A stretch of DNA of 32,212 nt from Phoronis ovalis (Eukaryota; Phoronida; Phoronidae). This document shows positions 5,522-32,212 of this stretch, piece by piece. Where the stretch lies: the NCBI GenBank assembly GCA_028565635.1, contig JAOXYB010024847.1:1-32212 (forward strand). The letters run 5' to 3'. The position numbers and the translations under genes were made by a program. Each line of letters opens with the position of its first letter. The stretch's first letter is position 1. The notes beneath the pieces were generated by a model. The model did no database searches, had not been told where the DNA came from, and saw only the letters and a program-made list of their open reading frames with translations.

Positions 5522-7366
5522 TGATTATCACACTTTTCTGAGACCACTGATTCCAGTATACAGTTTATTTAATGTTACCATTTCGTTTTATAAATCCTTA
5601 TTTATTTCTTATAGTTGAAGACAAAAATATCTTTAATTTCATACAGCAAAAAACCTTTCCTTTCTTCTAGAATGCATGATCCTTGGCCAAACGTACGAAT
5701 TGTTCATATTAGGCATTGTAAGAAATTTAGAGAGAGTGAAATAAACGTAAAACTAAAGTCCTATCTGAATAGACTACAGTTTTTAAAAAAAGATCATCAT
5801 CGCAAGCATCAGATTAATAATAGAGACAGTATCATTCACATGGATCGTCATCATTGACGAGCAGACGACATGCCGTCTGCAAAAAACGTGCATATAAAAT
5901 CTCGGCAAGATCTGTATATAAAAAGCAGAACACATTCGATCAACATACCTGCAAGGGTCAGTGATGAATTTTCTTCTGCGAAATTGTTCATAAAGTGCTC
6001 GTACTTTGTGGTTGGTTTTTGGTACAGCTGTTTTGCGCTGCGAAAGTGCCAAACAAAGTCAACTGTCTCGCCATTTTGGAATCAGACTAATTTACAGCAG
6101 TAATGTAAAATACATAGTAATGTCGTAATATTAGTTCCATTTTCTTCCACGAGATGTCGTAGGTTAACGGATATCAGTATTCACGTCACCAGGCGGAAGA
6201 ACATTGAAACATCTCAGAAATCGCGCTTAATAATGTATTTTTTACGGGACCAAACTTTGCAAGTACTTTTCAGATAGTTTTGCGATTTTACCAATTTCTA
6301 TACGTTTGGGGCCTTGAACCACCCACCCACTAAACGAACACTGTTCGTATAGAATCGGTTTGCAAACTTTTGAGATCTTCCCTAAAAGATAAATGAGTTA
6401 TTTTTCAGTATTTTAATACAAATGATTCCTACCTAACATAAAATCATTCTCAGCTTATATATTGAATATTGTTTAGAATAACAATATACTAGGATTTTAC
6501 CCTGCATTATACCTTCAACATGATACATTTCTATGAAAACAAATTGTACAGAAAATTAGTAATTTTAACCACATATGCCCACAAAATAACAAGAAGAATT
6601 ATCAGTCAATCTACTTCACACTTTCGAAATGTCGTTTTACACATTTTAAAGTGTTTGCCATTTTGCATTAATTTTAATTTTTAAAGGAAACAATTGCATT
6701 TTGTTTATTCTATTTATGTACACAAGGTCACATTTAGCATATAATCAATTATTAATAACTAAAAAGGTTTTCCAGTATTTTAACTGCATAAGTTTGGTTA
6801 CAAGTATGCTTCTCTTACTAAGTAGTTTCGCTTCAAACATTGGTCTGTATGAAAATAACAACAGACACAAGACTCATCTAGGTAGAAGTATTCACGCATG
6901 TCTTGGTTGTTTTTTAGAAACAGATTAAAGAGCCTTAGTAATATTGGTTGCACGCACTAGGCAGCATAGTGAAACAAATCATATTAATCCCACAGTTCAC
7001 AGCTTTTTGTAAAGATCAATCCCACAGTAAACTCTTAATGCCCTCATCATGCATTACATTTATAAACAAGCAAATTGCGGGATCATTTGGGTTTATTTCG
7101 TTTTCCCACCTACAGCTTACAAATGGTGCATTGTGTTAAAAAGTAAATTGTTGACTAATGACAGAAATTTTTTAGATGTTAGAGTTAACTGCATTTCAAA
7201 AAGTGAGTAAAACTTGATTTAAAATATGTCTGTAATCTATGACATAAAATTTTAATAATTCATACAATGTGGTAAATGATATTTAGAACCAACATAAAAA
7301 AAAATAAAGACTGTTTCTGGAGTAATTGGGCTACTGATTCTAAAAGAATACCAACTCATTCATTAC
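5522..7366. other. Gene-poor stretch left of MMS22L exon 11
   Basis: This should be MMS22L intron 11 or beyond. I found no further conserved exon. It holds a small CpG-containing patch (about 5860-6260) with a near-palindrome at 5861-5880 (GCAGACG-ACATGC-CGTCTGC) and a possible minus-strand first exon (listed separately). The remainder is AT-rich without structure I can interpret. Confidence 0.5.
5953..6074 (-). other. Possible minus-strand first exon or transposon-derived relic
   Basis: On the minus strand, CCAAAATGGCGAGACAG, a start-like ATG in a YY1-type AAAATGGCG context (ATG at 6074-6072), opens MARQLTLFGTF and then an in-frame stop after 28 codons. An overlapping frame reads through VPKTNHKVRALYEQFRRRKF to a good donor (TGCAG|gtatgt). 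MxRQxTLFGxF-like starts are common in hAT or zinc-finger transposase relatives, so a frameshifted relic is possible. This is weak evidence, and no family is claimed. Confidence 0.2.
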
Positions 7367-7492
7367 CAGTCTTTTGTAATAATGGTCCCATAATGTATTC
7401 AAAATTTCCATATCAGCTTCCCACAAGTAGGATAATTCTAAACAACAACGAAGGTAACACCGTGTGCTATTCTCATCATATCTTCCTTCATT
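7367..7492 (-). CDS. MMS22L: MMS22L exon 11 (residues 411-452)
   Basis: The acceptor is gtattttttag and the donor AGACTG|gtaatg; the exon is 126 nt, phase 0 to phase 0. It encodes RCYLRCCLELSYLWEADMEI followed by LNTLWDHYYKRL, corresponding to human LHCCLTLCDFWEPNIAIVTILWEYYSKNL. It is the last exon I can recognise toward the left edge. Confidence 0.92.
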
Positions 7493-10400
7493 CTAAAAAA
7501 TACAATGAAACCAAATGATAATATTATATTAATATACAAGCTAATGTAATAACTAAATATTTGACAAAAAGTCAGACAATTTGCATTCATTTTGTGGACT
7601 CGTAGGTTGCGGACCTCAGCATTTCAAGCATATTACATTTAGTGAATGAAATACACTACAATTCTCCGAGTGATTCATTCATAAAATGCTGGGAATGTTT
7701 GGTTCCTTGACCAGAAGCTTCAATAAGTGACTAAAATAGTTTATTTCTTTACATCTGCATTTCATTTTTAGATTTTATTTTGCGCAGTCACTTACCTTTG
7801 CTGGTCAACCTACTTTGTTGATGGAATAAAAGTCCTGGCTAATCAACTATTAATTTATTTTTTCAGAATTTGTTTTTTTTTATACATACTTGTAACTCAG
7901 TAAAAAGCTACATTAAACAAATTTGAAATCAGGTAATCAATACCAGCCTTCGTCTGTAGTGTTTATGAGGAACAAAGATCGTCGAGTGTATTAATGATAA
8001 TTTTTTTCTTTCCTTTTGCTTCTTCCCTGCGTGGCCATAAGAAATCACAAGTTCAAAAGTTACTTTTTATCACAAATTGATGGGTTGTTTTCAAACTACC
8101 AATAAAGTGTTTTCTGAAAATTCACCTTTTAGTCAAGGTAAGTTCAGTGGTTAACCGTACACTAAAATCGGGAGTAGACAAGAGGCATGGTTATTTTTAT
8201 TATGACTGAACGGAATTGCCTACAAAGAGTTATTTACTAGAAGACAACATATTACTATTGAGGTGGATAGGAAAATCAGTTATATCTTTATACCACATTT
8301 AAGAATATAATTCAAAAACAGAATATTCTCTTGAATACAATCTACTTCAAATAGCAAACGCATCATATATATATCATTATATATATAAAATATATAATTT
8401 TTATATGGTTGTTGCATAAAGGGATATAACGCTCACCGTAGACAGTGAAGACTTCAGCAAACCATGCACAACAACGTAGTTACTTCTCATATTGGATACA
8501 TTGCTAATATTGTATTCTCCTTTCATGTTGTAACCATAAAGTGGAGCCAGATTAGACAACAGCCACCAACAAAAACCAACAGGGTTTTTGCAATTAAAAT
8601 CTGGTGGCAATTGAAATTGTGATGTATCTGTAAATAAAAATATTGAAAATTTCAAATAATATTTTATTTGAAACCCAATGCATTACTAGGCTGTCTACTT
8701 TTTGATTTAGTTGAAAGTAGTTTAAGTCATTGAAATCTTAAAACTATAACAGTTTAATATTGTTATAACCAAAGCACTATAAAAAACATTGCTGCATACA
8801 GTAAGAGTTACAGCACTGAATTATTTTCTAAATGGTTTCATCATTATCTGACAAATAAATATTTATTGCTATTAATTTTGTTTCTCTTGATTTTTTAAAG
8901 TCAGATAAACCTTTATTTATCGTGTAATTAAATAGTAGTTTGCATTTTGAGAAACAAGAATATAGGGTAAATCAACTGATGTAACAGCCATGAGAAGACT
9001 CTTGATCAAGTCCTACTGAGCAAGAGGAACAGCAAGACCACTTCTCATTCACTTGTTGTATGCAGGTGCACAGTTAGTTAGTAGATCTCAATATTACTTA
9101 TTAATTATGTGACATCATTAAATGCTGACAATACAAATTATTCTTACCATGTTTTTGTTCTTGCAATGATGGATGAAGTATTTCTTGTAACACATGTTGA
9201 AGTACAACCCAGAATGACTATAAAATATCAGAAAATATCTATATATGCTTTGTTTCCAGAAAAGATGGAGAAAATTACACAGGTTCTTACAAACAAAGAG
9301 TAGTACGAATTCAACTTCAAACCAATCCAACAAAAATTTGATAAAGAGCTAAGAAAAAATTAATCATAATTATATCAATTTAAATAAGGCAGCAACATAA
9401 GTATACAATATTACTTTGTGGATGATCTGGTGCTGAATTTTCACTTCAACACTGATGAACTAATAGATCTGTGGATTGATATATCCGTACTTTATGGTTT
9501 CTTACGGTTATTTATTATATGAGTAGCTAGTTGTTTACTTGCAGATAAATATAGTTTAGTATACAGCAAACACGTACAGTACAAAGGATTTGTAGTGACC
9601 CATTCTTCAGTAACTGTACAAAAAACTCAATTTTTTTTTAATATAGCATTTTATCAGCTACTGTCCCGCTAATAACTAACACTTGATATACCATTACTAA
9701 ATTACAGTGTATGAAACTTAGCATAGGTACCTAATTTGTGAAACTGCTTAGTCTTACGGATCTTCCTCTCATATGGGAAGTATGCAAAATTAGCCAGGGG
9801 TCTCTTGTAACTGACATTGCTCAAAGATATTTTATCATAAATGTAATTAGCTTTTATTAGGTTGTTGTACAAGTCATATGCCTTAAAAAATGAATATTTT
9901 TCATTATATTCTATCTTTGTTGCACATGACATTTCCTTTGGTGCACATGACTGGATATTGTACATGGCATACTCTGAAGTCACACTATTTTTTTTTTTTA
10001 ATTCATTCGGCCATAAGAATGTTCTGGGCTGGACAATCAGAAGTTAAATACCCTGTCTGTGACATTGGCCTTGGGTGACAGGCCTTATTATAGTATGTGT
10101 TCTGGTAGAGATACAATCATGCATGTTTTGTCTTAATCGATGAGACCATAAGGAAGTTACGGAATTGAGAAATTGACAAGCAAAAGTTGCTGTTTTTTAA
10201 CTGTATTTTAGAATAATATGAACTTTTAAAAGAATACATAAATGTCACTTGAGAGAAGTTAAGTATTTCCTCCTTGACCAATTTCAAATTCAGTAAAGTT
10301 CAAACAATTCAGTATTGTTTTAGTATAATGTTTATGGTGTACAAAGGTTATTCAAATAAAAATTATCAATTAAAATTATCTTCTGAATATCACTATCTGG

Positions 10401-13400
10401 TACAATAATACCCATCACATTCATTTGTACACATTATTAGCTATGGCTCACGTAGTAAACACATTAACTAACTTTAGTGTTTGCAAATGTCAGTCACGCT
10501 TCCGTTTGGGCACAATTTCAGGTCAGCTACCAGCTTCGTTCAAGTTATCTTGAAAGTTTCAGCCATTTAAATGAAACAAGACATTAGCAATGTTAGATGC
10601 CTATCTCATCTATGGGATCATATCACATTGCGGCTTGTATATGTGGTTTTGTAGCCCTGATTTGTAGCTGGGCAGTGGTTCTCTTACACATTATACACAC
10701 AGAAAGCAAAGCATCAAATACAATTAATGTTAAGGATTTGGATGACATTTTATCCGCTTTCAAGGCCATTTTAAAATCTAAAATCATCCTAACCGGTCCT
10801 AATACACCCAACCACCTGTGGTCATCTTGAATCCATCTTCAAATCATCCAGTTAACTTCTTCGTCTTACTGGAAAGTGGCACAAACATATTGGAAGCAAT
10901 CTGTGCCAAAACTTTTACCTAATCTGTACTTTGACCGTAACTTACTGTTCTAAATAAGAGGCTGATCGAATAAAACTTCAAGCTGTTATTGTGTCCTACC
11001 ATCTCAAGAACAAACATGGCTGCCAGACAACCATCTTGCAAGTGATCCGAGTCATCTGTACTTTGACCTGTAGTTACTCTATACCGAATATGAAGCTGAT
11101 ATAAAAACTGATTGAAGTAGTTATTATCAGACAAAGATAGTGTTACGCATAACAAAAAAATGTCAAATATTCAGATCAGCATTTGACCCACTTCTCAAGG
11201 TTATTTTATTGTCACCTAGTCTGTTACTCCCACCAACCTATGACATTCCTGAATCCACTTTCAAAATTGAAGTGGCGCAATGTGATGTGCTCTCTCGGAA
11301 ACATACATGGCTGCTTATCAGCCATATTGTACGTAATTAAGGTCAAAATTATAACCGACCGGTATCTTGACCAGTATTTATCCTTTACCAAATATGAAGC
11401 TGATCTAAAGCTGCTACCATAACGTACCATCTCGGACAACGACAACACATACAGGACGATGTCCATTTCACTGTTATGAACTTTTTGGATGGGCCTTTCA
11501 GATTGGGAAGGGTACTTATTTCATTTTTGAATATTTGGTAGACATTTATTGGAAAGGGTTTATTTGAAACAACAATTATTAAATTTACCAAGTTACGGGC
11601 AACATTTAATGTTTCCAATTGCATTTCAAGTTGATAACATTTCAGTTTTAATTTGTTTTTTAAAAAAATGTAATTGTTGATAAAACTTTTATTATCAATC
11701 TACTAGTAACATTCAATACAATATATTTAATATTATAATAATAAAATATTTAATTGGTGGTAACTTCAAGTACATACAGCGAGCCAAGCAGCTATTGAAA
11801 GACAGTATTAGGAAATATTTAAAATACACTTCCTTTTAAATCCAACAGCTGATTTAAGGTTCAATATTTGATCCAGAATGAGCTAATTAACTAATTTTTC
11901 TGTCATTCTCAAATTACCAACCCTGGGTGTTTAAATGGGTGTGGGCATTTATTTCATTTTCAAGCTTCTGAGGTGGGTGTTTATTATGGGGCATTTAATA
12001 GCAGAATGACCATTTATTTAGAAAAATAGGTACTTTTGCTACTGAATCCACTGAATAGCTCCACAAGATATTGACGACGAGTGATAAAAATATTTCATCA
12101 TTAAAATTACATAAAATAAAAAAATCTTGTAAAATATTCAAGTATTATGCTAGCTGTATTGTACCACTCTTTAGTCAAACAAAATGAAGTCATTATGCCC
12201 TTGTTTTGCATCTAGACTAAGACTTAGGGATCATATTTTATTCAAGTAATGATGATTGTGGCTATAAAATAATACGTTTACTTATTAAGTACATTTTTGA
12301 TATATGTAGGCGTGCTAAAAATGTATTAAGTTAACTAACCGAAAAAAATAGTTTGTCATGAAAAATTGTATACGGAAATTAGTAAAAAAATACACTTGCA
12401 AAATATTCCAGTATTTTACTAGCTTTATTGTTCCTCTCTTTAAAAGAACAAACTGGCACGAATATGTCCTTGTTTTCGCATCTAGACTTAGATTAAGAGA
12501 TCATATTTTATTCCACTAATGATGCTTGTGGCTTTAAAATATGTTTGCTTATTTAAGCCCATTTGATATATGTAGGTGAGGCAAAGATGTGTTAAGTCAA
12601 CTGATCAAAGTATTGAAAATTAAAAACTGTAAACACGTCAGTCAAATCCTAATATGCTGCTGCGATGTCACTTATATGTCCAGTTGTCTGTACATCAATC
12701 TTATACATGGCTGCATCAAATCCACATGGGGTCACATGGGTCAGAAAGTATGTCCATATGCGCAAATCAAAAATCACACGTGCATAACATGCTTTACACA
12801 TTTAAGGTATATATTTAGCGAAATTTTGGCAAATAGCTATTTTTTAAAAATGCATGGACTGCCAAAGGTTATGTTTCACCATCAGACACAAATGCTTTTA
12901 AAAGGCTTAAAAAGGATATGATTTATTTTTAATCAGGTCTTCCAAGTCCCTTTTAAAGTTGCAAGTCTTCCAGCTATATATGTGCTTGGGGATTTTTAAA
13001 CCCTATGTTTGAGCATGTGAATGCACCCGTAACATGAGTGCCCTTTCCTGGACATCAAATAAGAATTCACAATAATAAATAAAAATTGTTATTTACATTA
13101 CATGGTCCTAATAGATACATTAGTTTGATAAACAAAGTGGAAACAAGAGCTGTTGCAAATGTTTAAATGTAAAGTTGTAATTAATAGATTCGGCAGTAAA
13201 AGTTGGCTATGTTCAAGGTTAATCAGCAATATAAATCTAACAGACAATCACGCCTTTCCCAGCCAGTTACAATTTAGCTCCAGAGGAAATTAAGATTACT
13301 AAAAATGTGATGATATATCTTTCTGTCATACCTGTACAATGAATTAAATGGATTACTTAAATGCACATGAGAATAATCCATGAACCAACAGGCTGACAAA

Positions 13401-16400
13401 AAGGCTTATAGTTAAGCCCCAAACACCTGCAGCCCAATACTGTAATCTATGTGCAGGATATTGTGGAAGTGGGGAGTTTATACAATCCCTTGATAATCAT
13501 GTGATGATACATTGTAAAGCTTTTCTGTGGAAATTTTGTTTAACCAACCAAAGCAGCTCAAAATAAGGGAGGAACATGGGCTTTAATCTATGATTTAAGA
13601 TGTCACATATGCTTGATTGTGTGACCTGATTTGAAACATTACTACAAAAAAGTTTTTTATATTAATTAGGGTTTCATAAATGATATCGATAATGATGATT
13701 CATATTAAGTAATGTTTGGTAACACTTTTGTTTATTTCATATGTTTTCCTTACCACCAATCTGTAATAACTATTTACCATAACCCTGTGGGAAAGCAACA
13801 ATTCTAAAGATTGAACAATATTCAATTTTTTACTAAAAGTACTAAATGTTATTATCATATATTTGATTTTGAAACACTTGAATTCACATATTAATCCCCT
13901 CTGATAACATCTCATGCCAATGAACAAAAGTGTGAATGAGGAATAATGTTATTGGTCTACAGGGTGACCCAAAAATAATAGGACAGTTTGATTTGACCTC
14001 AGTATAAATTAATAATACTTGCATTCTGTTATGTAAAAAAATAAATCTGTATCAAACTTGCATAAAATAAACTAAATCTTATTGGGATTGTAGGCAGCTG
14101 CTACTGGAAAAAACACTTCGTATCATGATTATTTGAATTGAAAATATGCATTACATAATTGTCAGGTTTCCATTTTTAAGTAATCATCAGTAGGTAACAA
14201 TGTCAGAAATCATGTTATCTTTTTTCTTAAGATTAATAATATATTATTTTCATGCAATATGGTTGTATAACTTTCTCTCAAATTTTGTGATAAAATAGCA
14301 GTTGGTTTATAATTTTGTTACAGATAAGGACATTTTGCATGATTTGAGTCAGGCAGCTAATGCAACATAAATGGATAAAATAAATTCCGAATCCAGCCAC
14401 ATCCCTTTTCCTTCGTTAAAAAATAAATTACTTTTATTATAATGATAATGATTATGTCCAATAAGTCAAAAGATTACATGATTAAGTCTCTGTCTATCAC
14501 TAATGAGAGCTTATAAATGTTTGTTGTATTAAAATTGTGATTAGGAAGCTTAGTGTGTCCACTGTGCCAAATGGTTACATTATGCTTTGGGTTAGTTAAC
14601 CTATAAATAGTGCTCATTTTCAGACATTTCCTAAAAATGAGCTATATTTTGGAAACAGGTGGACTCATGCCTTAAGGCACTCTGTTAAAGGTAATTACTG
14701 TCAGATTAAAATTAGTTTTAAACTGATTCGATAAATTAGAACTGTGTGAGCCATTTGGTATATAAAAAATAAGAATTTTACAACACACTAAAGATTTAGT
14801 TGTTCCAGTGCTAAAACATCTATTAACTACTTTGAATCAAAAGACGTGGGGAAAAAGACATATAGGTTTATTCAGGCCCATTTTTATGTCATTGACATTT
14901 GGTCATTTAAATTTTGTAAATCAAGGATTTAATAATGTTTACACAAGAAAAAGGCAAGATGAACAAGATTCTATGGACCAAATAATTTGAGATAAGAATA
15001 TGTTAGAAAAACAACAATAAGAATCTATACACTGAAGTGTACAAAGAAGAACGAAGCAATTGTAACCTTGAGACACTATTAAGATAACAGATTACAGATT
15101 CATTTGGTCTGTCACAAACAGAGTTCGGGTTTTAAAACAGCCAAACTGACAGTTTTTTAATTTTGTGAAAACTTGGAACGAAAGAATTGTCATTAGTTAA
15201 TGCATTTGTAATTGTTATGGCAAATATTTGCTAACATAACAGTTTGATTTTGACTGTTTGACAGTCAAATATGGAAACCAACTGTACAACTGAGGCGCCT
15301 ATACTGATTTCTAGTATTCAAAATTTTAAACCAACTATTGCATATCTATTGATGACCATCAAACTAGTCATGGCAGTTTTAATCATACTTGGGAACAGTT
15401 CTGTAATACTTATGTATTGGAATTTTGCAAAAATCAGAAAAGCACCTCACAATGTGTTTGTAGTAGCATTAGCAATGACTGATCTGTCATGTGCACTTCT
15501 ACAAATACCATTTGATGCGATTAAAAATATTTTACCCAATATGTATTTCCCAAATACACCTTTGCCTTGGCAGTACAGGAGCAAGCACTGGTGTTTAATT
15601 ACACTATATGTTCTTTTACAACCAACTGCATGGTCAGTGGCAACAATGGTAACAATTGCAATCGAGCGATTTGTTATAACAAATTTCACCATGAAAGCCA
15701 GGGATTGCATTTCTCGTAGAAATTGCGCAATATCAACGGGAATTATGTGGTCTATATTTAGTGTTCCTGTGCTTGGATGTATAATCAAGTCAGCAGATGA
15801 AACATATCACCCTAACGTTCGATGTACAACTGGCAGACAATTTGATAAAGGGTGGGAAAGTGCTCAGTTCCTGTCAATCTCTGCTATTCCTATGGCATTT
15901 TCTGCAGTGCTGTATGCTGCAATACTTATAAAGGTTGTCTGTCATAGGCATCGAGTGCAAACAACAATAGAAAATGAGGATGCACTCCAGCTACGCCAAA
16001 ATCAAGTAACAAAAACAATGTTTGTGGTTTTATTTTTTTTTGTCATCTGTATGTTACCATTTTACATTCTAGATATTTTGTTGGATTTAACAAGATATTC
16101 TAATAAAGTTTTGCGAGAAGTTTTAATACAAGGTAGTGTAATCTTATGGCATTGTAACTCACTTGTTAATCCTATTCTATATGCTTTTACAAATAGCCAT
16201 TTTCGCAAGTATTTTAAGAAACTTTTTGACAGGAGGAACATTGTTCATGCACAACGCTAAAAGTAAAGTGCATAAAACATTTACAAATACTTTTATTTGA
16301 AGAATGAACTACAGTATGAATAAGACTTCTACTAAATATTGTTGACATGACAGCGGCAATTTGGCAGAAAAATCATTAAGTTTTTATTCCATTTTGCTTT

Positions 16401-19400
16401 CAGATTTACGGAATTGTAACTTTACGATGCTTCTAACAACAGGGCAGGTGTAGTACTACTTGTCAAGCAGAAATAGGTACTTTGTCCTAGAAATATTAGT
16501 GTTGGTTTAGTACTGATTTGTAAGGCTAGAACCAAATTATCTTAATACGTAAAGTTTTGTTACGTTTTCTGCATTTTGATGTAGGCAACTCGATAATAAT
16601 GCTTATGTTAATTTATGAATATTTGTATTTGTGTTATATTCTAAAACATGTTCTCATTTGTGTGTCATTTGTAACTCAAGGATCAAGTGCCTATTGCTAT
16701 TAGCAGAAAACAACATTTATTTATTACTCAAGTAATGTTACTTGTTATGAATTAGTGTATTAAAAAATGTTTTTTGGAGAACACCAACTTCCCATGGTGC
16801 ACATGTAGCACAAACACTATTTGTTTTAGGCAAATTCAAATGTTCATTGTTATTGTCAACATGTTTATATTTACTTTTATAAGTTATTCTATATTGTTCT
16901 CGTCTTAAATACATTCAAAATACATTAAAGCCGATTTTAGTAGTCACCTGATTTCTTTTTGCACTTTACTTTACAACTCAAGCTCAAAATTAATTTATTT
17001 CAAACATAGTGGTGATGTGTTAGCTTTGAGGCCACAAGCTGGACATTATGTGGCATCATGCTTCAAACACTGCTCTGTGTGATTGTACCAGAATTGGTTT
17101 AACCCATCACATTTTCATTTTTTTTGAAAATCGGAAATACAAAAATCATATTCCCATATTTTAAGGCAAAAATTGGCAAAAACGAACGACTTGGCAGGTC
17201 TGTATTTGGCACAGAATGTTACAATGATTGCTTCGTTATCTCGAACAATCCGGAATAGAATGAAATGCAAAAAGAATTTGATTCAAATCTTGTCAGCTGT
17301 TTTTTAGCTGTTTGCATGATTATTGATATTACTCAAATATTGATATTTGGACACAAGATGTAAAAAAAATGCATTTAAAACGGTATTACAGGCAAGAGAG
17401 GAGGCAACTGGTGTACTGGAAAATTAAATAAAAGTTTGTTTTTGTCTCATGAATTTTACGAAATGAAAAAACAAAAATTATATCCTTGCTTTTTTTATCT
17501 TTATTAAGTAGTAATAGTTTTAAGTGGCGGCATGTATTCAACATAAAAGTAACATTGTTCAAATAAACAGACTACGCTGCATCTAAAAATGTATAACACT
17601 TCTACAACATTAGCTACTAGGTTTATTAAATCACTGCAAAATGACAAGGTGTGAAGCTTGATCGGGAGTTGCGTCATACATTAAAATTTAAGTTTTAACT
17701 GAAAACGTCCAAATTTTTTTCTTTTTCCCTATAAAGCTGCAAAGTTCAAGCTGCTAAAAGTTTTTTAAATAAGATCATTCCCTACCATATAATATTTAAT
17801 TTGGTATATAACATATGCACCTTTGCCTCAACAAAACATTTTTTTATCTTGTTTAACCCACCATCCCAAACTGTTAAATTACAAGATAATATTATTATTA
17901 AATTGTGCATCAGTAACTGAAAAACTAATGACAATAATATTGTTCCTTTTTCCTTTAACAATTTTGATCTTTATAAGGTAAAACAAATCATTTTCGTTTT
18001 CTTTATTTGAGTGCGAGTTTTGAATAACCTTATTTAATAAGGAAAACTGTATAAAATTTGTGTACTTTTTCAGATCAAAATTTAATAAAAAGCAAATTTT
18101 TCCTTTTTCCTTATTCTAATCAAAATTGGGTTTCTCAAGACTCAAAGTAGGTTCCTTACCTCATCATCAAGAAGAAGTATTGTTGAACAGCACAAAATGA
18201 TCTGGTGAAAAAAACTGTATGAGTGGAAATGTATCAAGCATATATTTTTGTTGACATCAAATAGATCTACATGAGCAAATGATGTACTTTTTGCATGAGT
18301 TTTACACTAATTTCCGTCAAAATATTTCGATACTGCGGATACATTATAATATTGCGGATACATCACAATATAGGTACAGTTTATGAAATATGTTGATACA
18401 GAATTTTAACAAAATAATTAGGTTTTACCATGAACAGGTACTTTAAAATGACACATCAGGTAATACTGCAATTACATGCTCTAGTTGAGTGAATCTATTT
18501 ATGGAAGTAGAAGCCTTGGACAGGGTTCACAGAGATTGAATTTAAAGCTCAGGATATTAACATCTGTTTTAGAAACCTCTGTGTAGTGTAAACGTCGAAC
18601 TGTAATTTCGCAATTTTTGGATTAATCCGGTGTGGATTTGCATAGGATTATACTTGATTTGCAGGAATTTGGTAACATAGCAAATTACTCATGGTACTGC
18701 ATAAATCCTTGGATGATGTTTGAATGACACAAAAAATAGAAAGCCTTATTTTAATGACAAAACAGAAACTTTACAGTCAACTGAAGACAGCGTAGAAAAT
18801 CAAGATGTATTAAATTATGCAAATGTTGCAGATTCTGTTGGGCAAGGATTATTCAAACAAGTAGATATTGACGAAGGCAAAGAAAAAATTGATAATGATG
18901 TAGTGAATGATGATTCACGCCATTTGGGGCTCGCCTAAATACACTTGGCTACCAACACTAATATGGGGCTACCTAATTATCAGCTTAACTAGCCCTCATG
19001 GCTACCATCAACTTTCCACATGTATCAAGCCCTGTCTGTGGCACATTATACTTACCGATACGAAAAAAATCTATCCAGTTTTCTTCTAACAGTTTTGGTC
19101 ACTAAGACGGAACCTCAATTATACAATCCCCTACACATGGAGGCTGTCTCATTAGCCGAATGATTTAGCTAAGAGATATTCAATAATAACTATGAGTAGG
19201 AATAGGTTAATTCAAATTTGATGAGCAAAATGTCCTCAAAAAATAATGACAAGAAAAACTGCATTCATACATTGATTGCGCTACAAAACTGACAATATTT
19301 AGGATTCTACCTCACTAGAAAAAACATCAGCAGGGAAGATGTGTATAAAAGAAAAATAAATTTTGGTAACCTTGTTTGTGACAGTTCCGTTCTGTTAATG

Positions 19401-22400
19401 TTAACACAATGACATCATTTTGTTTTTGTTGGGTAAAGCAGCGGCATAGTTTTGCATTGATTTTATAACAAATAACTAGTTCAAACTGATATAAAGCACA
19501 TACAGTTAAAACAAAAATTGTGCGTATCCAGTAATGGCGTGTAAAAGAAAAACAGGGCAGGTAGGCAGGGAAGGCAAGCATTTAAAAAAAAAATTTGACC
19601 AAAGCATGAAAGGCACAATGAAAAGAATAACAACACAGGTGTTCACTGTGAAAAAAAACATTATGGCCTTAAATTTTATTTTGGCCTTAAAAACTATACA
19701 TAAATAAATCTGAAGGATTTTTGCTAGACAGCTGTTAATTTGGGATGTTAACATTATCAGTTACCAGTTGGAAGAATCCATTGATCTTTCCTTGCCTTTG
19801 AAACAAAGTGCCACTAGGTGGTATATCATGACAATTCTTTCTACAATATTGTCGTTAAAATTTAACATCTCTACTGTCTTTACTTATTATTTACTCTACT
19901 AAAAATTATTGTAAAAAAAATACAATTTATCACATTTTCAAGTAAAGTTAATATTTTGGCTTTTCCTTCCCTCTCCATAATGTATTGAATTCCTGTTTTT
20001 GAAAGTGAATGTGCTTTCAATCAAATATAAATTTTTATCTTTTAAACACCATGAATATTTTAAATTCTGTTTGCCATTTTACATTTACATAATAATATAA
20101 AATTTTGTTATGAGTATGATAAGATTTAGGTGACTTATCATTACTAAATCTTCTGTCTGCAATGCTGTACAATACTAAATAATCACAGCTATTAAACTAG
20201 ATGCTGTTTCATAATGTATGCTTAACTTACATAAAACTAATTATTTGCCAATTAAATATACTTGCATTTTTAATGTTACCCTGTATATTCTACATACACC
20301 TGAGTTCACATATAAATTTCATGTTGCCATATCAAAGATAAAAAAGTAACTGCAAAATGGTTAATACTTTAATCCACATTTCTTGATAATGGGATTTTAG
20401 ATGTTATTAATGTCACATAATATCAATTTAAATGAGATGATATAATCTTACTCTCCTAGACAGTATTAATAACCAGAATAACTAATGATATAACTGTATC
20501 TGGCACGGAGCAAAAAACAAACTAGCGGTTACAGGTACATCCTACCACAACTAGAGACCCGGATACTGTTCAGCCACCTTCTAAAATTCTGGAATGTCAG
20601 CAACCAACTTTTATCTTAATACATTGTACACCATTGCTGCCATTTGATAGCAAAGCTGAAAACCTTATTCCGGTACATGGGCTACTTTAGGGTAGTTGTG
20701 AAATGTGTGAAAGATGTTTGTGTTGACATTTCCAGCAAGATCAAAACTAAAAAAGTGTTACAAGCCATTTTTGGTTAGTCTCTCAAGTATAGACAATGTA
20801 AAAGAACATTTTTATTACACACAAAAAGGATGCATTATCTATTATTTTTTATAAAATAAGATTCTTTTATATTTGCTTGCAAGAACATCAACATCTTCTG
20901 ATTGGTTAACACACAGATATTCCCCTTCCCTCCTTATACGACAAACTACATTTTATTTCCTATTTGTAGCCTCTCACTAAACCTAGATACTGCAAATTTC
21001 CTGATTCCTATAATTAATCAAACTGCATCTCCGCCCTTTAATGCTGACATCATATAAAGGGACAAAACCACTATGTAATATCTCATCTGTATACCTCAAA
21101 CTGAATATCCTATTCTGACAATTATTCATTAGCTCTGATTGATCACAGCTAAATTTTCTTCATTTTTGTTTGGCATGCAATAAATTAACTCGAAAAACAG
21201 AGCTATAATTAAATTACACTTACAGTACTTGCTTTGATCAACAAACAGAGATTGACACCTGGAGAGATATTAATTACCCTTGTTATGTGACTTTAAATCA
21301 GATGACTATAGGCTAGGTTACATGTGCATATATTTAACTTCAAATTAAACTATGCAATAGAAAATAAAAGACCAAGTAAGTATGTGCCATTTTGAGTTTT
21401 GCCCGCCAAAATTTTCAAACAAAAATCGCAACAAATCTATTTACATCAAATAGTATACTAGCTTTATCACAAGACCAGTATTTACAATCAATTAAGAATT
21501 AAACCCTATCTGATTGCTTTTGCACAGGATTCTCCATAAAAAGGTACATGACCCAATGAAAATAACAAGGTTTAAAGAAGATATTTCAAATGGTAGAGAT
21601 GACGACAGTTTGAAACTAAATACGAACACTGAACTTCACAAGTAAACTTACCAACGAGAAAATTTTAGATCCTTTTGACTTAACCATTTTAAGAAATTTA
21701 CAACAATCTAGAAAACAAATGAAGGTAAATTTATATAAAATGGAATTTATTAGTTTAATGCCAAAAATATTTCTATCCAAGGCAACCAAAACAAATAAAT
21801 CATATGGAAGTCATATAGCAGGAAAGTATTTTTTTTTATTAAACTGACGCATGTACAATTTTCACTATTAAGTATATCCAGCCAAGGGGTGAGTCGGCAC
21901 TTTCTGTTCATATACAGTGTGCACCAAAAAAATTAACGGTCAGCAAGGTTCCTATACGTCAGTTAAAGTCGCTAGATACAAAGACGTGTATATATATATT
22001 TCTGGTTATGTTTTAGTAATTAAACTAAAAAGGCATAAAAGTACACATTATTAAAGAAGTTAATACTCTAAACATTACAAATTCTGAGGTTATATAGTTT
22101 GAATTTGGTTGTACGACTTGATAAAAACTACAAACTGTCTCATATTTTAATAATTTTGGTTTGTTCAAAAGTTATAATTTTTTGAAACAGTTTTGTAGAT
22201 CTATAGAGAAAGATTATTTCTGCCAAGTTCAGTTTGTGAGTGCATGGGTTTTTGACCTAAATTTTTTTTGAAAGTTAAAATTCGAAAAACAAAACTTTTT
22301 TTCCAACATGGCCATATATCAGATCATAAGAATTATTTTCAACCTTTTGTCTTTTGATTCATTGTTATTCTATCGATAACATTAGGCCCATTCACACTTA

Positions 22401-25400
22401 CCACTTAAAGCGCTTCATAATAGAGCACTCTTTAATAAAGCGCTTCAGCCTCTAATGTGTATGCGAATAAATCGCTTCAAGGGCATTAAAATAAAGCGCT
22501 TCAAGCAAAAATTAATCCTCCTCCTGAGGTGGGTTAACTTTTTCCTGAAGCGCTTTATAAAAGTTTTAGCGACTTAACTTTCTACCACGAGCTGATGTTT
22601 ACCTGCGCATTAGCAATTGATATTTCCGCTTTATTAGCATGCTGGCTTTTGCCGCAACAATAATATATGCGTGTGTGTATATATAAGTTGGTTGTGGAGC
22701 TCGTCTTATCTGAGGTAATTTATCTAAGAAACATCAAGACACCTCTTGCCAGCCTCCTTTTAAAACCTAAAAATCAGTCCCAACTCCAAAAACATTTTAT
22801 TATCCAAAAATTAGACCCTGAAAAACCATAACCCTTAGGAAATTAAAGGGCTTAACCAAACAGCTTTAAAGGATGCACTTTCATAGGATATCAATCAATA
22901 GGTTAACCTAACGGTTCAAAGTCAATACTGACCTGTATGAATATTTAAACCTATGTGACATCACTTAGAGTCATGGAAAAAAATGTGAAGTAAATAAACT
23001 GCACATGGTAATTATTTCGACAAATCTCAGACAAAAGTGATCACTCAATGTGACTAAGTTAACAGTTTCGTCATTAATTGAGTTGTTGAAGAGAAAATTG
23101 CTCATGCAAAACGAGCTCAGTAGTATAAATATACTCTGTTCATTAATAGCTATACTGTGACTTCTATCATTAATTATAACTTCCAGGTATCTCCTTTTTC
23201 CTAGGATCAAGATTTTATAAAAATTCCAATGGATTTGGAGCCTTCATAAGCAATAGGGTGCTGACAGTAAATATAAATGTACAGCATGCATTTCTTTTTT
23301 AAATTAAATATCTCGATCATGACTGGTCTTGTAGATGTTTTATACAATTCAAACAAGATACTGTTTATCATATTCAAATTTCATTGCAGTCTCTTCTGGT
23401 ACATAAAGTTATGTAAAATTACATGATTGAAAGCAAATTAAACTGTGTTGTATTCCTTTTGTGTCACCCTGTATATCTAGATAGAATTATCAGTGGGACA
23501 TATATAAAGGGGAACAATCTGTTTAAATTATTAATTATGGTATGAGCCAATCATTTATATGAAGGACAAAGATATCACATCTGTCTGAGAAAGTTATTAA
23601 ATTCTAATGAGTATTTAAAGTGCTCAAGGTGATGCAATACAATTACTAAAATATTTTATAAAAAAACAAGTTGGAATGTTTTCGGATTAACTTTGTTTCT
23701 AGAAGATCAAAGCTGTCTATTTATTAAGGACTATACTCAGCTTCATGTGAGTAAATCATAACAAAGCCAGTCTCCAGATAAAATCATTTGACCTGAAACG
23801 AATCATAAAATACCACGTATAGTGAAGTACAAAACCAAAGCGTTGAAATTTGGAACGAATATTGTTTTGTTCACTAATTTAAAGTAGGCATCAACAAAAA
23901 CTTTTCGAAAAAAAAACCAACCAGGACAAGTTTTGAATTTTAAAGAATTGAAAAATGGAAAACAACACTACAAGATTTATGTCAGATATTCAAAGTTATA
24001 GTCTATCTGTTGGGTGGCTCCTTTTTACTATTAGAGCTGTTACTGTAGTTTTGATTATAATTGGGAACACCATTGTAATACTTATATACTGGAATTTCAA
24101 AGAAGTTAGACAGTCGCCTCAAAGTATCTTTGTAGTCACATTAGCAATGACTGATTTGGCATGTGCAATTTTTACAGTGCCTTCATACATGTACAGGAAT
24201 ATTATACCAAATATGTATGACCCAAGAACACCTATGCCATGGCATTATAGAAATAAGGAAGTTTGTTTATTAGCATTATATGCCTCATTACAACCGACTT
24301 CATGGTCGGTGGCCATACTGGTATTAATTGCCATCGAAAGATGTATGGTGACATTTTCCCCAATGAAATCCAAATATTTCATTACTCGCCAGAACTGTAT
24401 TATAGCTGCATTGACTATGTGGTTAATATTTACTATTCCTCTGCTTGGATGTATAATTACAGCTGCAGTGGAAACATACAATTCAAATATTCGTTGCACA
24501 ACTAGAAGACAATTTGACGATAGATGGAAAAATGTTCATTATTTATCTATTTCAGTTATACCTTTGAGTCTTGCCGCTTTGTTGTATATAGGAATACTTA
24601 TTAAAGTCCGTTACGAAGCATATCGAATACAACGTTTAACTGCCGGAGCTGTGGTACAAAACAGACGCCAAAACAAAATTACAAAGACCATGTTTTTAGT
24701 ATTATTTGCCTTTGTTATTTGTATGCTACCTTTCTATATTCAAGACATTTTGTTACAAATAACAAAATATTCACACAGAGTTTTTCGGGAAGTTTTGGTA
24801 GAAACTACTGTCATTTTGTGGCACATTAATTCTCTTGTGAATCCATTTCTTTATGGATTCACAAATAGTAACTTTCGCAAATATTTTAAGAAGCTTTTTC
24901 ATAAAAGAAACAGTGTTCATCCTGCATTGTGAGTTCTTTCATCCATCATAATAATGCTGTTAGATTACAAGTTATTTGTATAACAATTGCTTTATCTGTA
25001 AGTATTAGTTTTAACACAGCTTTTCTTAACTGGTCTCTGCAGTGTATCGGCTATGTTTAGAGTCCTTTCTAAGATTATAGTGTAAACTGTTGGTCATTTA
25101 CCTTCTGGCAATCTGATTTCAGAAGCGACATTATCAGATAACAATTTAATTTTCATTAACTCTACCTGAACGCTATTGTTATGAGCACTGTATGTAATAT
25201 AATTGTTAATATTATACTTGTGATTTAGGCTGTATACAGAATAAATAATATGTTTTATTATAAAAATTATTAAGATATTATAAGAAAATATCACTGGCAC
25301 AATTCAAAATGTTAAATAAAATTGACAACAACATATACTTGTAACAAATTGACTGTATGTTATCCAAATGGTAACATTTCGTATTCAAAGTAAACAACAA

Positions 25401-28400
25401 TTTTGCTTTTTGTTAAAAGTAATGAATACCAAATTGAACATACCTCCTTCCCATGCTGGTCATGTCGGTGATCCAACAGCTGCAGGACAAGTGTCCAGAG
25501 TTCACGTATGCAAGTGCATGGAAATGGAGAGGTCTGTTTATAAACACTGAAGGACAACTGAAATACAAATACTAAGCTAAAGAAAAACAATCCACTTATT
25601 TTAAACTTCTACTGGCCAAGATTTTTTTTTTGCTGGTAGTCTGGTTAAAAATTTCTCCTCATTTTTGGTTTAAAATGTACTTTCTTGTCCTTTGCACAAA
25701 TTGTTAAACTGAGCAATAAACAGAATTTTAAAATGACAGATAAGGAGGCAAATGAAAATTGTATGGATAAACATTTAACCATGTGAAAACTAGTTTACAG
25801 TAATAAACAAGACATTTGTCATGTCTAACGCCCATCTAATGTCAGTGTGGGATTATATTTTTTTTACATTATAAGTTTTTTACATTAGAAAAGAATAGAA
25901 TACTTCATGCATTATAATCTGGTTTATCATTGTTTTGGTGGGGTACTCTTATTCAAAATGACTGTATGTTCTGTCCGATGCGTTACCCCCGTGGAGTACT
26001 GACCATTTTTAGATGGGGATGTGCAGCCAAATCAAAATATCCACCCATTTTTAGGGATTTTGTTCTCAAAAAGTGACCCATTTTTAGGGTTTTCTGTCAC
26101 AAAAAGGATCAATTTTTAAGGTTTTTTCATGAAAAAACGACCCATTTTTAGGGTTTGTTGAAAAGTGGACTAATTTTTACAGACATTTCTGTGAAAAGTG
26201 GACCCATTGTTATAATTGTGAAAAAGTGACCCATATGGGTCACCAACCTATGGCCTTCTTAGAACCACCTTTGAATCATCCAAGCAGCATTTTGCGGCTA
26301 CAAACACAACGTGACATGCCATGTAATCTGGGTCAATATTACACATAACCCGTACTTTGACCTGTACTTATTCTGTACTGAAAATGGAGCTGATCGGATA
26401 AAAACTGACGCAGTTATTGCAACACAATAAAAATTGTGGTAAAAATTGTCAAAGATTTGTATCTGCATTTGACCTACTTGTCAAGGTCATTTTGAAATAT
26501 CACCTAGTTAATTACGCTCACCAACCTATGACCTTCCTAGAACCACCTTTGAATTGTCCAGGCAGTGCTTCGTCTTCGCGGCTATAGACGCAACGTTACG
26601 TGCCCTCTCTAGAACAAACATGGCTGCCAGTTGGCCATATTGGAAGTAATCCAGGTCAATATTAAATATAACCCGTACTTTGACTTGTACTTACTCTGTA
26701 CTGAATATGGAGCTGATCAGATAAAAACTGATGCAGTTATTGCAAGACGAAGTTTCGTACTGGCATTTGACCTACTTGTCAAGGTCATTTTAAAATGTCA
26801 CCTAACCTATTACGCCCACCAACCTATGGCCTTCCTAAAACCACCTTTCAATCGTCAAGGCAGTGCTTCATCTTCGCGGCTACAGATGCAACGTTACGAG
26901 CCCTCTCGGGAACAAACATGGCCGCCAGCCGGTCATATTGGAAGTAATCAAGGTCAGAAACATAAATGACCTGCACTTTGACCTGTAAGCTATTATCGCA
27001 AGATAAAGGAAAGTGTTACATAAGACAACGACAACGCTTTCACTACGACAATATGCACAGCCACTATGTGGATGAGCATAAAAATCTTTCTTGCAAATTT
27101 AATAGTTTGATTAAGAGCTTAGCATACTTTATGATGTCTGTTGAGAGCGATAATCACCAAATCCCATATGAGAATTAGCACAGCCTGTGAGAACACATCC
27201 ATTTCAATGGCGTCAATTCGGGAACATAACAACACTGGTTCACCATAAGTAACCTCTACAAAGTTTACAAAATATTATTTTTTATTTCATATTGGATAAA
27301 ATGAACTTTTTTGCAGTGCTTTATAAAAGCAAAATATCTGTGACATTTAATAAGATAGCTGTTTATCAACGTTAAACTAGAACTCCCATCCATATTTTTG
27401 TGTATTGAGAAAATCGAAAATTTGTTTTGGAAGTATTTTTAAGGAATGTACTTTTAAATGCGTGATTTAAATCGCATTAGGTCTCTCCAGCCTCTTTTCA
27501 CTATGGTTCAGGTACTTTTGCTTTTCTATATACATTGCAAAAATCACTTTTTAATTTAATGTAAATAATGGAAACTTATGAACAATTACACCTGAATACA
27601 GTTTCAACCAATAAATAACTGTAATTTTGTTTGGGGTAGTATTAAAGTTTTATGTGTCTATTTAGCACTTTTATCGTAACCAAAATTAATTCTTAGATCA
27701 TTATACTTTTCTCTAACTGAAACTTTCTAACCAGACTGATATGCAATATGGATATCTGTACACAGATTGCATGACAGTATATATACTTTACTTCAAAACA
27801 AGCTGCTTTACCTGACAAGTTTGTAGAAAGAAGATACAAAATCTGGACGACATTCCAATGTACATCCATAAAAAAATGAAGAATGTGATAATTTCCAGAT
27901 GACGTCTAAAAACAGAGGAAAGTAACCAGTTTAAATTATTATGTTATTGCGCTTTTTTGGGTAATTGAAATTAGAAGCAATTTGTAACATTACAACAGTG
28001 TTACAAATGTTTAAACATTGTTTCCCCTCATATTTGTCATTACAAGAAGTAGCAATCAATTAAAAAAGAATTGCAAAGTAAGCTTCCATCACAGGTCTTC
28101 GTTACTGAAATTATTTAATAGTTAAGGGGGTGTTGAAAAAATAGGAATGATAACCTTTAAAATTTTCTATTCCAGTTACATAAATTCGCTTATGTATCTC
28201 AGGCATTTTATTTGCATCGTAAGAAACTTGTACAAAAAAATGCCTTGTCACTCCAATGACGAGTCGCAGCTGAAAGATGTATGAGCAAAGGTTAATATTT
28301 GAATGAAAGGATACTTCTCACAAAATTATCCTTTTTTACATCAGTGCATTGACAGAAACATCATAGCACAATTCTAGTTTTCTAGATCCTGGTCAAATAC

Positions 28401-31400
28401 ATTGGAATGTTAATAAAAAATTAACAAACAATGTTAAGGTATCGACTTCAGCCACTTCTACCATGCTCATATATTTAGAACCTTGACATACCAATGAGAC
28501 AAACTTTCAAAGTTAATCATGTAATAGAATCATGTAGAAATACTTACATTGCTGCCATGTCTTGAAGCACTGTTTTCTATGATATGCCCTGGTAGAGATG
28601 TCAGTCTTCCAACATGCAGTAGCAGAGCATGAAGTTGATTCGTTAATACAGAAGAAAATTCTTGTGTAGAATTTTTAGGAACAAATCTGTAACAGTGGTA
28701 TCAATAGACACTACACACATATATTACTGACAGGCAAGGTTCATTACAGTCAAATCATATTAACAAAATGTTTAAAGGAAGACCAATTTTCCAGGCTAGC
28801 AACATCTGCACATTCAACAGTATGCAAAAATTAGTTAGTTACACTAAAAACACAAGTATAGTTGTTTTTCTATAAATTGTGCTAAAAAATAAAGGGATCA
28901 AAAATCATCATATAATCAACACACCTGTATATGTAAGTTTTAATGTATTCAAAAAAGGTAAGTATATCTTGTCTATACTGCATAAATTCTGTTGCACATT
29001 CGCCTCCATTACATGTTGATGCAGTTTCTTGCACACGCCTCTCAAATTGATTAATGTGTTTTCTACAAAATCACAAACAGTGATTGTTTTTTAATAAAGA
29101 AATTAGTAACGAGAAATATACTCAATGAATGTTCATTCAATTTGCGTAAAATTAAAATTACAGAAATAAATTAGAAGGCAACAGACTATTCACATGCTAC
29201 AGTTGGTGGCATCTGTAGTCAAAGCGAAACATTCCCACTGTGACATTTTTTGAATGAAAAATCCCCCCAGTCCTCAGAATTGTGGGATTGATTGAGTTCT
29301 TGTCCACTAACATTACTAATTTATAAGTGCATGCATATAGTCTATTGTCATTACTGTTGAGGGTATTTTAAAAAACAAATTAATAATAATTTTTAATGCT
29401 AATTAAAAGATATTTTAATAAAAAATATTTTAATTAATAATAAACTTTATTGCTAAAGGTGTTTTAATAAATTTTAACAATTTTCACTGCTGTTTTTTTT
29501 TTAATGAAAATAAATTTTAATAAAATATTTTCAGAAAAAATCTTAAGTAAGTAAGGATACTTTTTAGTGTTAAATATCTATTGGTACTTGTGGGCTGTGG
29601 CATTAAGCTGGCAATTTGGCATTTGAATAGTAATAAGCTTTTCTGAACTATTAACAGAGACCTCATTTTTTTAAACATATTTTTGAATTGTAACCAACAA
29701 AATATGGTCAAAACCAGATTCTCTGTTAAGGCAAATCCCTATATAGTTGGAGGACTTGGTGGTAAACACTGATATGCATTGTATATGCCTATCTTAAAAA
29801 TTCTTGTAGCGTTAAACTCGTTAATACCTTTAAAGATCACATAATTATATCTTTTCACTATAATATAAGACTTTTTAATCGTTTTATCAACAGCATTTAA
29901 AAAAATTATGTGCTATGACGTTCATATTATAGCCTTCTTAAAGTAATGTTCTGTACTTTTAAATTCTTCATATGAAAAAGAATTTTGTAATACTTTTTTC
30001 TTTTTTTATGAAATACATAAATTGGATTTGTACTAAACAAAGGGCTTATGTTGATGTGTGAAACTGTTTTGTTATCTGGAAAACTTTGAGAGAAAAATAT
30101 AATTGAACCATGTAAATTAGCAGATTTTTGGATGGTAGACAATGAAACATACGGTATTTTATTTTACACTGAAAATCAAAAATTGTTTTAATTGCTTGAT
30201 TATTAAAAAGTTAATCTTCATTATTATATCAGGAAATGTAAGAAAAGATTACTGTACAGGCAAATTTTTACTTTGTATGTGTTATAACCAATATCTAAAG
30301 TTATTTTGGCAGAATATCCCTTGCATGCAATATACCTCAGCATAAAAAAGACCCTATGAATATCTTCTTTCAAAGCAAGCTGAGTTATGAACTGGTACCC
30401 AAATAACTCGGCAGTAACTGTTTGAAATGCTGTAGGAGCCAGGTCATTACATGATAACATCCTACAAAATAAGAATTCAATTAAATGATGGGTTTCTATC
30501 AAAAAGCAGTATTTTGCATTTGGTTTCAAGGAAAACAAATGATTTCACTATCTGCACCTAAATAAAGGAAAAACACAAGTAAGTTTTCATATAGCACATC
30601 TACTTTTCAGGGAAACAGTCAATCAATTTAAATATTTATCATTTCTACTAGCTAATTAACAACACAAAGAATCCATTGTCAATTATGTGTAATCAAACAG
30701 AAATATATAACAAATGTATAACAAACAAGTATGGACATAAATTTGATATTTTTATTGGGCTGTCAGTTAGGAGCTATTTAGAATCCTAGGGATAGATGGG
30801 AGATTAAAGGTATTTTTTAACAAAGAAGCTTTCAGACTGCAATTAATTCACCTGTGCAGGGTTTGCTGCTTTAAATATCCATCTCGATGAACATCCTTGA
30901 AATCTCTTGGATTAGTTTCTCCACAGCACGTGAAACAGGCAGGTACATCAGAAAGAAAATCTTTAAGAAAAATAACAATTGATATATCTAATCATTTAGG
31001 ATATATTTACACATTAAATTTAGTATAAATGTCCTTTTTCTAAAGAAAATCTGCCAAAGAGTACAAACATTTGAAATATTAGTAGCAGTTTGCAAGATAT
31101 ACCTGGCACACAAAATTTCCCAATATTTCACATAATCTTGTTTGACTGTACTTCAGATTCTAACCTTGCTTATTACACCAGCTATTAAATGTGGTACCAG
31201 ATATAAAGATTCATGTGACTTTTTAAAAAAAAATAATCAGAAATTGACTTATTTAAATATACATGCAAATCTAAATAAGATTCCTTCTTCACGATACCTT
31301 CTTCAAACTGCCTCTTTTCTACTGTATCTATAGCAAATTCATAGTCCATTTGCTCAGGCGCTTTGTGTATTGGAGAAAGTGGTGGTGTCATAGAGCAGCT

Positions 31401-31424: not shown

Positions 31425-31680
31425 TCTGAAATCCTGTTACATCCCATATGTTTTGAAAGTTGCAGCTAATAATTTCTTTAGTTTCTACTGTATCTGCTAC
31501 TTAAAAAACAGAAGTCACTGGATCTCTAGAAAATACAAAGATTGAACGATGTATACAATACAATATCATAACTTGCGTGTAAAAACGTGATCAAAATAAT
31601 GATGCACCAAAAAAAGGAATTGCTGGATATTTATAATTAGTTTCAGTACTTTACTTTATCTACTGTTAATACAAGAAGTT
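31425..31680 (-). promoter_or_regulatory. MMS22L: Presumed MMS22L 5' flank
   Basis: This interval between the MMS22L start codon and the reverse transcriptase relic should hold the 5' UTR and core promoter, unless an upstream non-coding exon exists. I see no TATA box at a clear position and no CpG-rich patch. Confidence 0.3.
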
Positions 31681-32150: not shown

Positions 32151-32212
32151 GTCTGCAGGTGCAGACAGATGCCCATCATATGATGTAGTTTCTTTAGTTG
32201 TAAAGCCATCTA

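What the first reader, a model, noticed from the sequence alone, without database searches (positions are those of the whole stretch)
8628..25101. Two paralogous intronless GPCR genes nested antisense inside one MMS22L intron
Consecutive MMS22L exons 9 and 10 flank a 16.5-kb intron that holds two intact receptor genes on the other strand. Nested-gene arrangements with a duplicated receptor pair are uncommon. They suggest retroposition or insertion of one copy followed by local duplication, and possible transcriptional interference with a DNA-repair gene.
Basis: partly seen in the sequence, partly recalled or inferred. Interest (0 to 1): 0.8.

Follow-up and report, generated by a model that had tools for sequence, protein, structure and literature searches.

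The report
Receptor gene pair inside MMS22L intron

Summary
The core observation holds: two intact, intronless rhodopsin-class receptor genes (15271-16260, 23955-24932, + strand, 56% identical) lie inside one intron of MMS22L, which runs on the - strand. Coordinates and exon 9 were wrong. The host intron is intron 8, 9218-25443: 16,226 nt, against 238-1,570 for the other nine. No second MMS22L copy was seen. The receptors are sisters (100/100), old (dS 1.2) and constrained (dN 0.30). Nine other aligned members are intronless too, and the close family forms same-strand arrays on three other contigs: local duplication explains the pair; missing introns do not indicate retroposition. They match no ligand family closely; Aplysia's single-exon, clustered candidate chemoreceptors are the nearest likeness. 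Short, intronless, opposite-strand nested genes are common in vertebrates. Verdict: real and ordinary. Expression, interference and conservation of the nesting could not be tested.

The parts
15271..16260 (+). receptor gene R1, 329 aa, single uninterrupted frame, rhodopsin-class 7TM receptor
   Evidence: model with seven long helices plus short ones, mean pLDDT 82.7; class A receptors as best PDB folds
23955..24932 (+). receptor gene R2, 325 aa, single uninterrupted frame, sister of R1
   Evidence: sister to R1 at 100/100
9218..25443 (-). host intron (intron 8) of MMS22L, 16,226 nt, GT..AG
31298..31424 (-). MMS22L exon 1, coding part from ATG (5' UTR not determined)
   Evidence: matches Lingula residues 1-17
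30852..30960 (-). MMS22L exon 2
30336..30461 (-). MMS22L exon 3
28925..29062 (-). MMS22L exon 4
28548..28686 (-). MMS22L exon 5
27812..27905 (-). MMS22L exon 6
27128..27255 (-). MMS22L exon 7
25444..25557 (-). MMS22L exon 8, last before the host intron (ends in phase 0, donor gtatgttc)
8437..8627 (-). MMS22L exon 10
7367..7492 (-). MMS22L exon 11; no later exon was found on this contig

Best explanation
This is an ordinary host-nested gene arrangement. A multi-exon MMS22L gene (- strand, one copy seen) carries in its intron 8 a two-gene local array of an intronless rhodopsin-class receptor family (+ strand). Shown: the two intact frames, their sister relationship, the exon order, phases and splice ends of MMS22L, and the family's habit of same-strand local arrays. 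Inferred: one receptor gene arrived in a formerly ordinary-sized intron by DNA-level duplication; a local duplication then made the pair; both copies were kept under purifying selection; each is transcribed from its own promoter on +, while MMS22L splicing removes the whole 16-kb stretch. Inferred with less weight (about 0.4): the receptors are lineage-specific chemosensory-type receptors for an unknown ligand. Inferred: the nesting has no functional link to MMS22L.
For: Receptors. Constraint: dN 0.30, dS 1.20 over 325 codons, codon-position identities 0.70/0.77/0.55. Similarity between the two loci ends at the coding frames (15375-16248 against 24047-24920; besides that one 40-nt inverted match at E 0.004 and ten at E 0.17-0.60), so the duplication is old. 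Tree: R1+R2 100/100, C2497 pair 100/99, C2876 pair 99/98. Arrays: C661 four matches (one broken), C2497 two, C2876 two, each contig on one strand. Host: MMS22L_N E 2.2e-78; 9 of 9 matches of the Lingula protein at E <= 0.01 in the held genome lie on C972 (residues 40-461) or C2635 (978-1211), so no second copy was seen. Intron 8 is 16,226 nt against 238-1,570 for the other nine. Nothing else recognisable in the intron: of 84 open frames scanned (of 96 of at least 48 aa listed), two matched 7tm_1 and one (exon 8) MMS22L_N. Precedent: Aplysia AcCRb, 38 full-length intronless genes of 319-364 aa, some clustered, two pairs 9.2 and 13.3 kb apart (PMC2700072, passages).
Against: No transcript was available: splicing across intron 8 and receptor expression are inferred. 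The chemosensory reading rests on analogy; the signature motifs of the Aplysia families are not present, and the top named matches of the family profile are allatostatin-A receptors (25-26% identity to R1) and histamine H2 receptors (28-32% over about a quarter of R1). MMS22L residues 462-977 (Lingula numbering) were not matched in the held assembly (77 Mb, 4805 contigs). A misjoin within the contig cannot be excluded without reads. The Pfam scan of the intron cannot see short exons: it did not hold true exon 9, whose frame is under the 48-aa limit.
Confidence: 0.83

Rival explanations
1. The receptors arose by retroposition of a spliced receptor mRNA into the intron, followed by local duplication.
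For: Both are single-exon. Retroposition is a known source of intronless nested genes (established knowledge).
Against: All nine other members aligned are single-exon too, so the intronless state is most simply older than this pair. Other arrays of the family show the same strand pattern. An intron-bearing parent is not excluded: partial matches were not followed up. A poly-A tract or target-site duplication was not searched for and would have decayed at dS about 1.2.
Confidence: 0.1
2. Assembly artefact: receptor-array DNA misjoined into MMS22L.
For: The assembly is fragmented: MMS22L is split over two contigs, whose ends share a repeat (95.8% over 72 nt).
Against: Exons 1-11 are in order, strand and phase across the stretch. 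Exon 9 sits 520 nt from exon 10 and exon 8 lies 511 nt beyond R2 (own arithmetic). GC in the intron (0.295-0.342 in 2-kb windows) is like that of the repeat-poor flanks. Stretches with another copy in the window (E <= 1e-8, receptors aside) lie at 3-2001, 2888-5522, 10886-11408, 12083-12602, 22491-22558 and 25803-27085: three of them are in the intron, none at its ends.
Confidence: 0.06
3. The reader's 25102-25165 is a real alternative exon, mutually exclusive with 9148-9217.
For: Its ends are AG/GT and it keeps the frame if it replaces exon 9. Including both breaks the frame (64 nt before a phase-0 exon; own arithmetic).
Against: 246 pieces in the same stretch satisfy the same rule, and it ranks 196th of them in MMS22L similarity.
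Confidence: 0.03
4. The nesting is functional: antisense receptor transcription tunes MMS22L output, or the two share a regulatory element.
For: Antisense orientation. Precedent for a conserved nested receptor gene whose host intron may hold its enhancer: Drosophila tim2-2mit (PMC3786989, abstract).
Against: No data here. In the tim2-2mit case host and nested gene did not seem functionally related (abstract). Expression divergence of mammalian nested pairs does not differ from that of unnested pairs (PMC8467205, abstract), although the same abstract reports divergence by interference in Drosophila.
Confidence: 0.05

Closest known systems
Opposite-strand nested protein-coding genes of animals (PMC8467205; part 1 of 4 and passages seen)
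   Same: Short intronless internal gene, large host intron, opposite strands, origin by duplication
   Different: Two tandem paralogues in one intron; the paper's strand figures are for hosts with a single internal gene
tim2-2mit of Drosophila (PMC3786989; outline and abstract seen)
   Same: A membrane-receptor gene nested antisense in an intron of a gene tied to chromosome stability
   Different: Putative leucine-rich-repeat receptor, one nested gene, nesting known to be conserved; here conservation is untested
Aplysia candidate chemoreceptors AcCRa/AcCRb (PMC2700072; passages seen)
   Same: Rhodopsin-class, chiefly single-exon, 319-364 aa (AcCRb), no close orthologues elsewhere, clustered about 9-13 kb apart; same orientation stated for the AcCRa pair
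   Different: Signature motifs FITAFITFERCLCIA / WITAFVTFERCLCIA absent in R1 and R2 (ER or ERC shared); expression here unknown; the passages seen mention no host intron; the AcCRa gene drawn there has an intron
Protein MMS22-like of Lingula anatina, P0002
   Same: 39% identity over the 60% of the typed query that aligned; exon 9 residues SFWITLDEILQQVLH against SFWVVLQHVLQEILH
   Different: Gene structure of the Lingula gene not available here

Membership tests
MMS22L | MMS22L_N domain (PF14910) across exons 1-11 | tested here: met
   264.9 bits, E 2.2e-78, profile 1-412 of 708
MMS22L | MMS22L_C domain (PF14911) in the same gene | tested here: inconclusive
   found on another contig, C2635; residues 462-977 of the Lingula protein were not matched, so the two contigs are not linked by sequence
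Nested (intronic) gene | whole internal gene within one host intron | tested here: met
   both coding frames lie within 9218-25443; receptor UTRs unknown
Nested (intronic) gene | separate transcription of internal and host genes | not testable with these tools
   no RNA data
Rhodopsin-class (class A) GPCR | 7tm_1 profile above curated cut-off and seven helices | tested here: met
   95.4 and 99.3 bits against cut-off 30.5; seven long helices in the R1 model (R2 not modelled); class A receptors as best PDB folds
Rhodopsin-class (class A) GPCR | NPxxY, E/DRY and CWxP motifs (motif names recalled) | tested here: inconclusive
   by eye sequences: NPILY/NPFLY met; ERF/ERC in place of DRY; CMLP in both in place of CWxP
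Aminergic receptors (histamine, serotonin, trace amine) | aspartate at 3.32 (numbering recalled) | tested here: not met
   counted from the TM3 cysteine (R1 C108): L115 in R1, S in R2 (own count sequences)
Aplysia-type candidate chemoreceptors | signature motif FITAFITFERCLCIA or WITAFVTFERCLCIA (passages) | tested here: not met
   R1 ATMVTIAIERFVI, R2 AILVLIAIERCMV (by eye)
Aplysia-type candidate chemoreceptors | single-exon genes of about 320-360 aa, clustered | tested here: met
   11 aligned members, 319-352 aa, uninterrupted frames; 9 of these 11 on contigs with another member
Aplysia-type candidate chemoreceptors | expression in chemosensory organs | not testable with these tools
   no RNA data
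Retrogene | intron-bearing parent gene | tested here: inconclusive
   the nine other aligned members are single-exon; partial matches not followed up; held genome partial
Retrogene | poly-A tract and target-site duplication | not tested
   no search made; little could survive at dS about 1.2

The most novel reading that the evidence does not exclude
The MMS22L intron is a nursery for a lineage-specific receptor family: after one receptor entered, the host intron's chromatin or an embedded enhancer kept and duplicated it, so that receptor output and MMS22L splicing became mutually dependent and the nesting is conserved across the phylum.
Probability: 0.04. Interest if true: 0.5.

Novelty: new member of a known kind. 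Interest (0 to 1): 0.2.

Why it matters
It is a clear case of two tandem receptor genes nested antisense in one intron of a genome-maintenance gene, and it belongs to an intronless receptor family for which the searches here found no close relative outside this genome. It also shows how a phase-compatible decoy exon can mislead a gene model in a long intron: 246 pieces of 40-160 nt satisfy the splice and phase rule, and homology picks the right one.

Tried and rejected
Other coding content in the intron: 84 of the 96 open frames of at least 48 aa listed went to Pfam; the 12 left out overlap a receptor (11) or exon 8 (1). Two matched 7tm_1 and one (exon 8) MMS22L_N. Decayed third receptor in the window: tblastn with 11 receptors gave three weak matches outside the two genes, E 0.15-0.59, none credible. 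Host genes around the other arrays: 68 of 82 open frames of at least 60 aa on C661 (whole), C2497 (1-10000 of 12601) and C2876 (1-10000 of 11942) gave 7tm_1 (8 members), other 7TM receptor models and two weak single matches (Rieske_4 3.6e-4, OB_RNR_2nd 7e-3); the 14 left out overlap receptor frames. No sign of nesting there, but short exons would be missed. No Rfam family at gathering score and no tRNA in the window. Protein search of R1 alone: 1 weak hit of 1586 candidates; of the 11-member alignment: 124 hits of 7811 candidates, 120 listed, highest identity to R1 47% over 5% and 36% over 33% of its length, so no close relative among those listed; the tool pre-filters by shared 5-residue words. 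Papers: MMS22L + nested gene, 0 papers; MMS22L + intron + GPCR, 2 papers, unrelated by title and start of abstract; nested gene + chemoreceptor + intron of + tandem duplication, 0 papers; broader searches gave the precedents cited. The organism was not identified; the best of 4 MMS22L hits is Lingula, so a lophotrochozoan-like animal is a guess. A 68-codon open frame at 28317-28114 in intron 5 was considered as an exon and rejected by eye because its splice ends would break the phase into exon 6 (no call made for this).
Full report
What was claimed. Two paralogous intronless receptor genes were said to lie antisense in a 16.5-kb intron (8628-25101) between exons 9 and 10 of MMS22L.

The receptors are real. 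The + strand frames 15271-16260 (329 codons) and 23955-24932 (325 codons) are the two longest ATG frames in the window. Both match 7tm_1 over its whole length and each other at 56%. In 200 first-order Markov versions of the intron the longest ATG frame was 159 codons, median 88; with the two receptors removed the real intron's longest is 87. A model of R1, built on a 21-row alignment, has seven long helices plus short ones (mean pLDDT 82.7, pTM 0.82); the 50 best PDB folds shown are opioid, adenosine, adrenergic and other class A receptors at 16-23% identity. By sequence the nearest solved chains are trace-amine, histamine H2, melatonin (R1) and somatostatin receptors, E about 1e-11 to 1e-18 (60 best shown of 467 and 525), so no ligand class stands out. 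NPxxY is intact; CMLP replaces CWxP and ERF/ERC replaces DRY; there is no aspartate at 3.32 (motif names and numbering recalled, counted on the sequences).

The host is MMS22L, but exon 9 was misplaced. Joined - strand exons match MMS22L_N. Comparison with the Lingula, Branchiostoma and two Haliotis proteins (hits, tblastn) shows a conserved block, SFWITLDEILQQVLH in Lingula, between the residues of exons 8 and 10. In the window it is SFWVVLQHVLQEILHPSLQEQKH at 9217-9148. By tblastn alone this match is weak (E 0.46 for Lingula); the splice context makes the case: acceptor ttttatag, donor gtaagaat, phase 0 in and 1 out. A scan of all AG..GT pieces of 40-160 nt with the required phases and no stop, over the stretch 8629-25443 on the - strand, gave 246 candidates. 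This piece took ranks 1 and 2 (two alternative donors), mean scores 44.5 and 42.0; the next scored 24.2, and the best of the plus-strand and reversed-sequence controls 19.5 and 23.75. The host intron is therefore intron 8, 9218-25443, 16,226 nt. The other nine introns in the window measure 238-1,570 nt, so this one is about ten times the next longest, as expected if receptor DNA enlarged it (inference).

No second copy of the host was seen. The Lingula protein matched nine places in the held genome at E <= 0.01, all on C972 (- strand, residues 40-461) or C2635 (+ strand, residues 978-1211); MMS22L_C sits on C2635. Residues 462-977 were not matched. This window's right end and the left end of C2635 share a 72-nt repeat (95.8%), so contigs seem to break at repeats.

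The receptor family. The held genome gave 55 matches to R1 and 63 to R2 at E <= 0.001 (lower bounds by the tool's own statement). Closest are C2497 (two, 32-37% in the two calls), C661 (three full-length and one broken copy), C2876 (two), C4653 and C1263. The eleven aligned members, window pair included, are uninterrupted frames of 319-352 aa. On the four contigs with more than one of these (C972 2, C2497 2, C661 4 with the broken one, C2876 2) all copies of a contig share one strand, chance 1 in 64 if strands were random (own arithmetic). Among more distant rows, C3166, C1059, C3393 and C14 also carry two matches each on one strand, and I saw no contig with matches on both strands. Spacings are 8.7 kb here, 9.8 kb on C2497, 6.5 kb on C2876 and 3.5-5.3 kb on C661 (own arithmetic). 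In a tree of 26 proteins (16 from this genome, 10 named) R1 and R2 are sisters at 100/100, as are the C2497 pair (100/99) and the C2876 pair (99/98); the eleven-member group itself has 93/91 and is not among the starred forks. R1/R2 divergence is dN 0.30, dS 1.20 (Nei-Gojobori); the C2497 and C2876 pairs are of like age, dS 1.20 and 1.41. Apart from the coding frames, blastn between the two loci found one 40-nt inverted match at E 0.004 and ten at E 0.17-0.60. Local duplication is therefore the family's ordinary way of growth, the pair is old, and both copies have been kept by selection. Missing introns say nothing for retroposition here.

What they do. Shown: intact, constrained receptors. 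Inferred: lineage-specific receptors for an unknown ligand, perhaps chemosensory. The closest description in print that I saw is the Aplysia AcCR families (PMC2700072, passages): chiefly single-exon, 319-364 aa for AcCRb, clustered about 9-13 kb apart, no close orthologues in other metazoans. Their signature motifs are absent here, so this is likeness, not membership. Tandem arrays of candidate olfactory receptors are also reported for Acanthaster, there in both orientations in the cluster drawn (PMC5442662, passages).

How unusual is the nesting. PMC8467205 (part 1 of 4 and passages) counts 452 nested pairs in human (4.4%), up to 8.7% in opossum, calls internal genes typically short and intronless, and finds 74.3% (human) and 77.8% (mouse) on opposite strands among hosts with a single internal gene. 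Drosophila tim2-2mit (PMC3786989, abstract) is a receptor gene nested antisense in a chromosome-stability gene; its abstract puts intronic genes at about 6% of Drosophila genes. The present case is of that kind; its one mild twist is that two tandem paralogues share the intron. My three searches for this case in print found none.

Limits. No transcripts, no reads, no genomes of animal relatives and no name for the source organism were available. Splicing, expression, interference and conservation of the nesting are untested.

Noticed in passing
window 31603-31989 (+): Fragment resembling a LINE reverse transcriptase (..FADDTNVYNNIGSLQDISILQIDLDRLVSWANSWQL.., frame), RVT_1 E 0.0091, 16.2 bits, below the curated cut-off of 29.6, upstream of MMS22L exon 1.
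   Followed up: partly
window 3-2001, 2888-5522, 10886-11408, 25803-27085: Stretches with another copy in the window, with tandem periods of 461 nt at 271-1186 and 466 nt at 3434-5223; they fall in MMS22L introns 7 and 8 and beyond exon 11.
   Followed up: partly
window 32141-32212 and C2635 (L011) 18-89: The same 72-nt repeat (95.8%) at the ends of the two contigs that carry the two parts of MMS22L, suggesting assembly breaks at a repeat.
   Followed up: partly
L028 (C661:1520-2131, -): A broken receptor copy with three in-frame stops at one end of the four-copy array, a sign of birth-and-death turnover in the family.
   Followed up: no
window 12083-12602: Two diverged direct copies about 270 nt apart (families D5 and D6) within the host intron, of unknown nature.
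   Followed up: no
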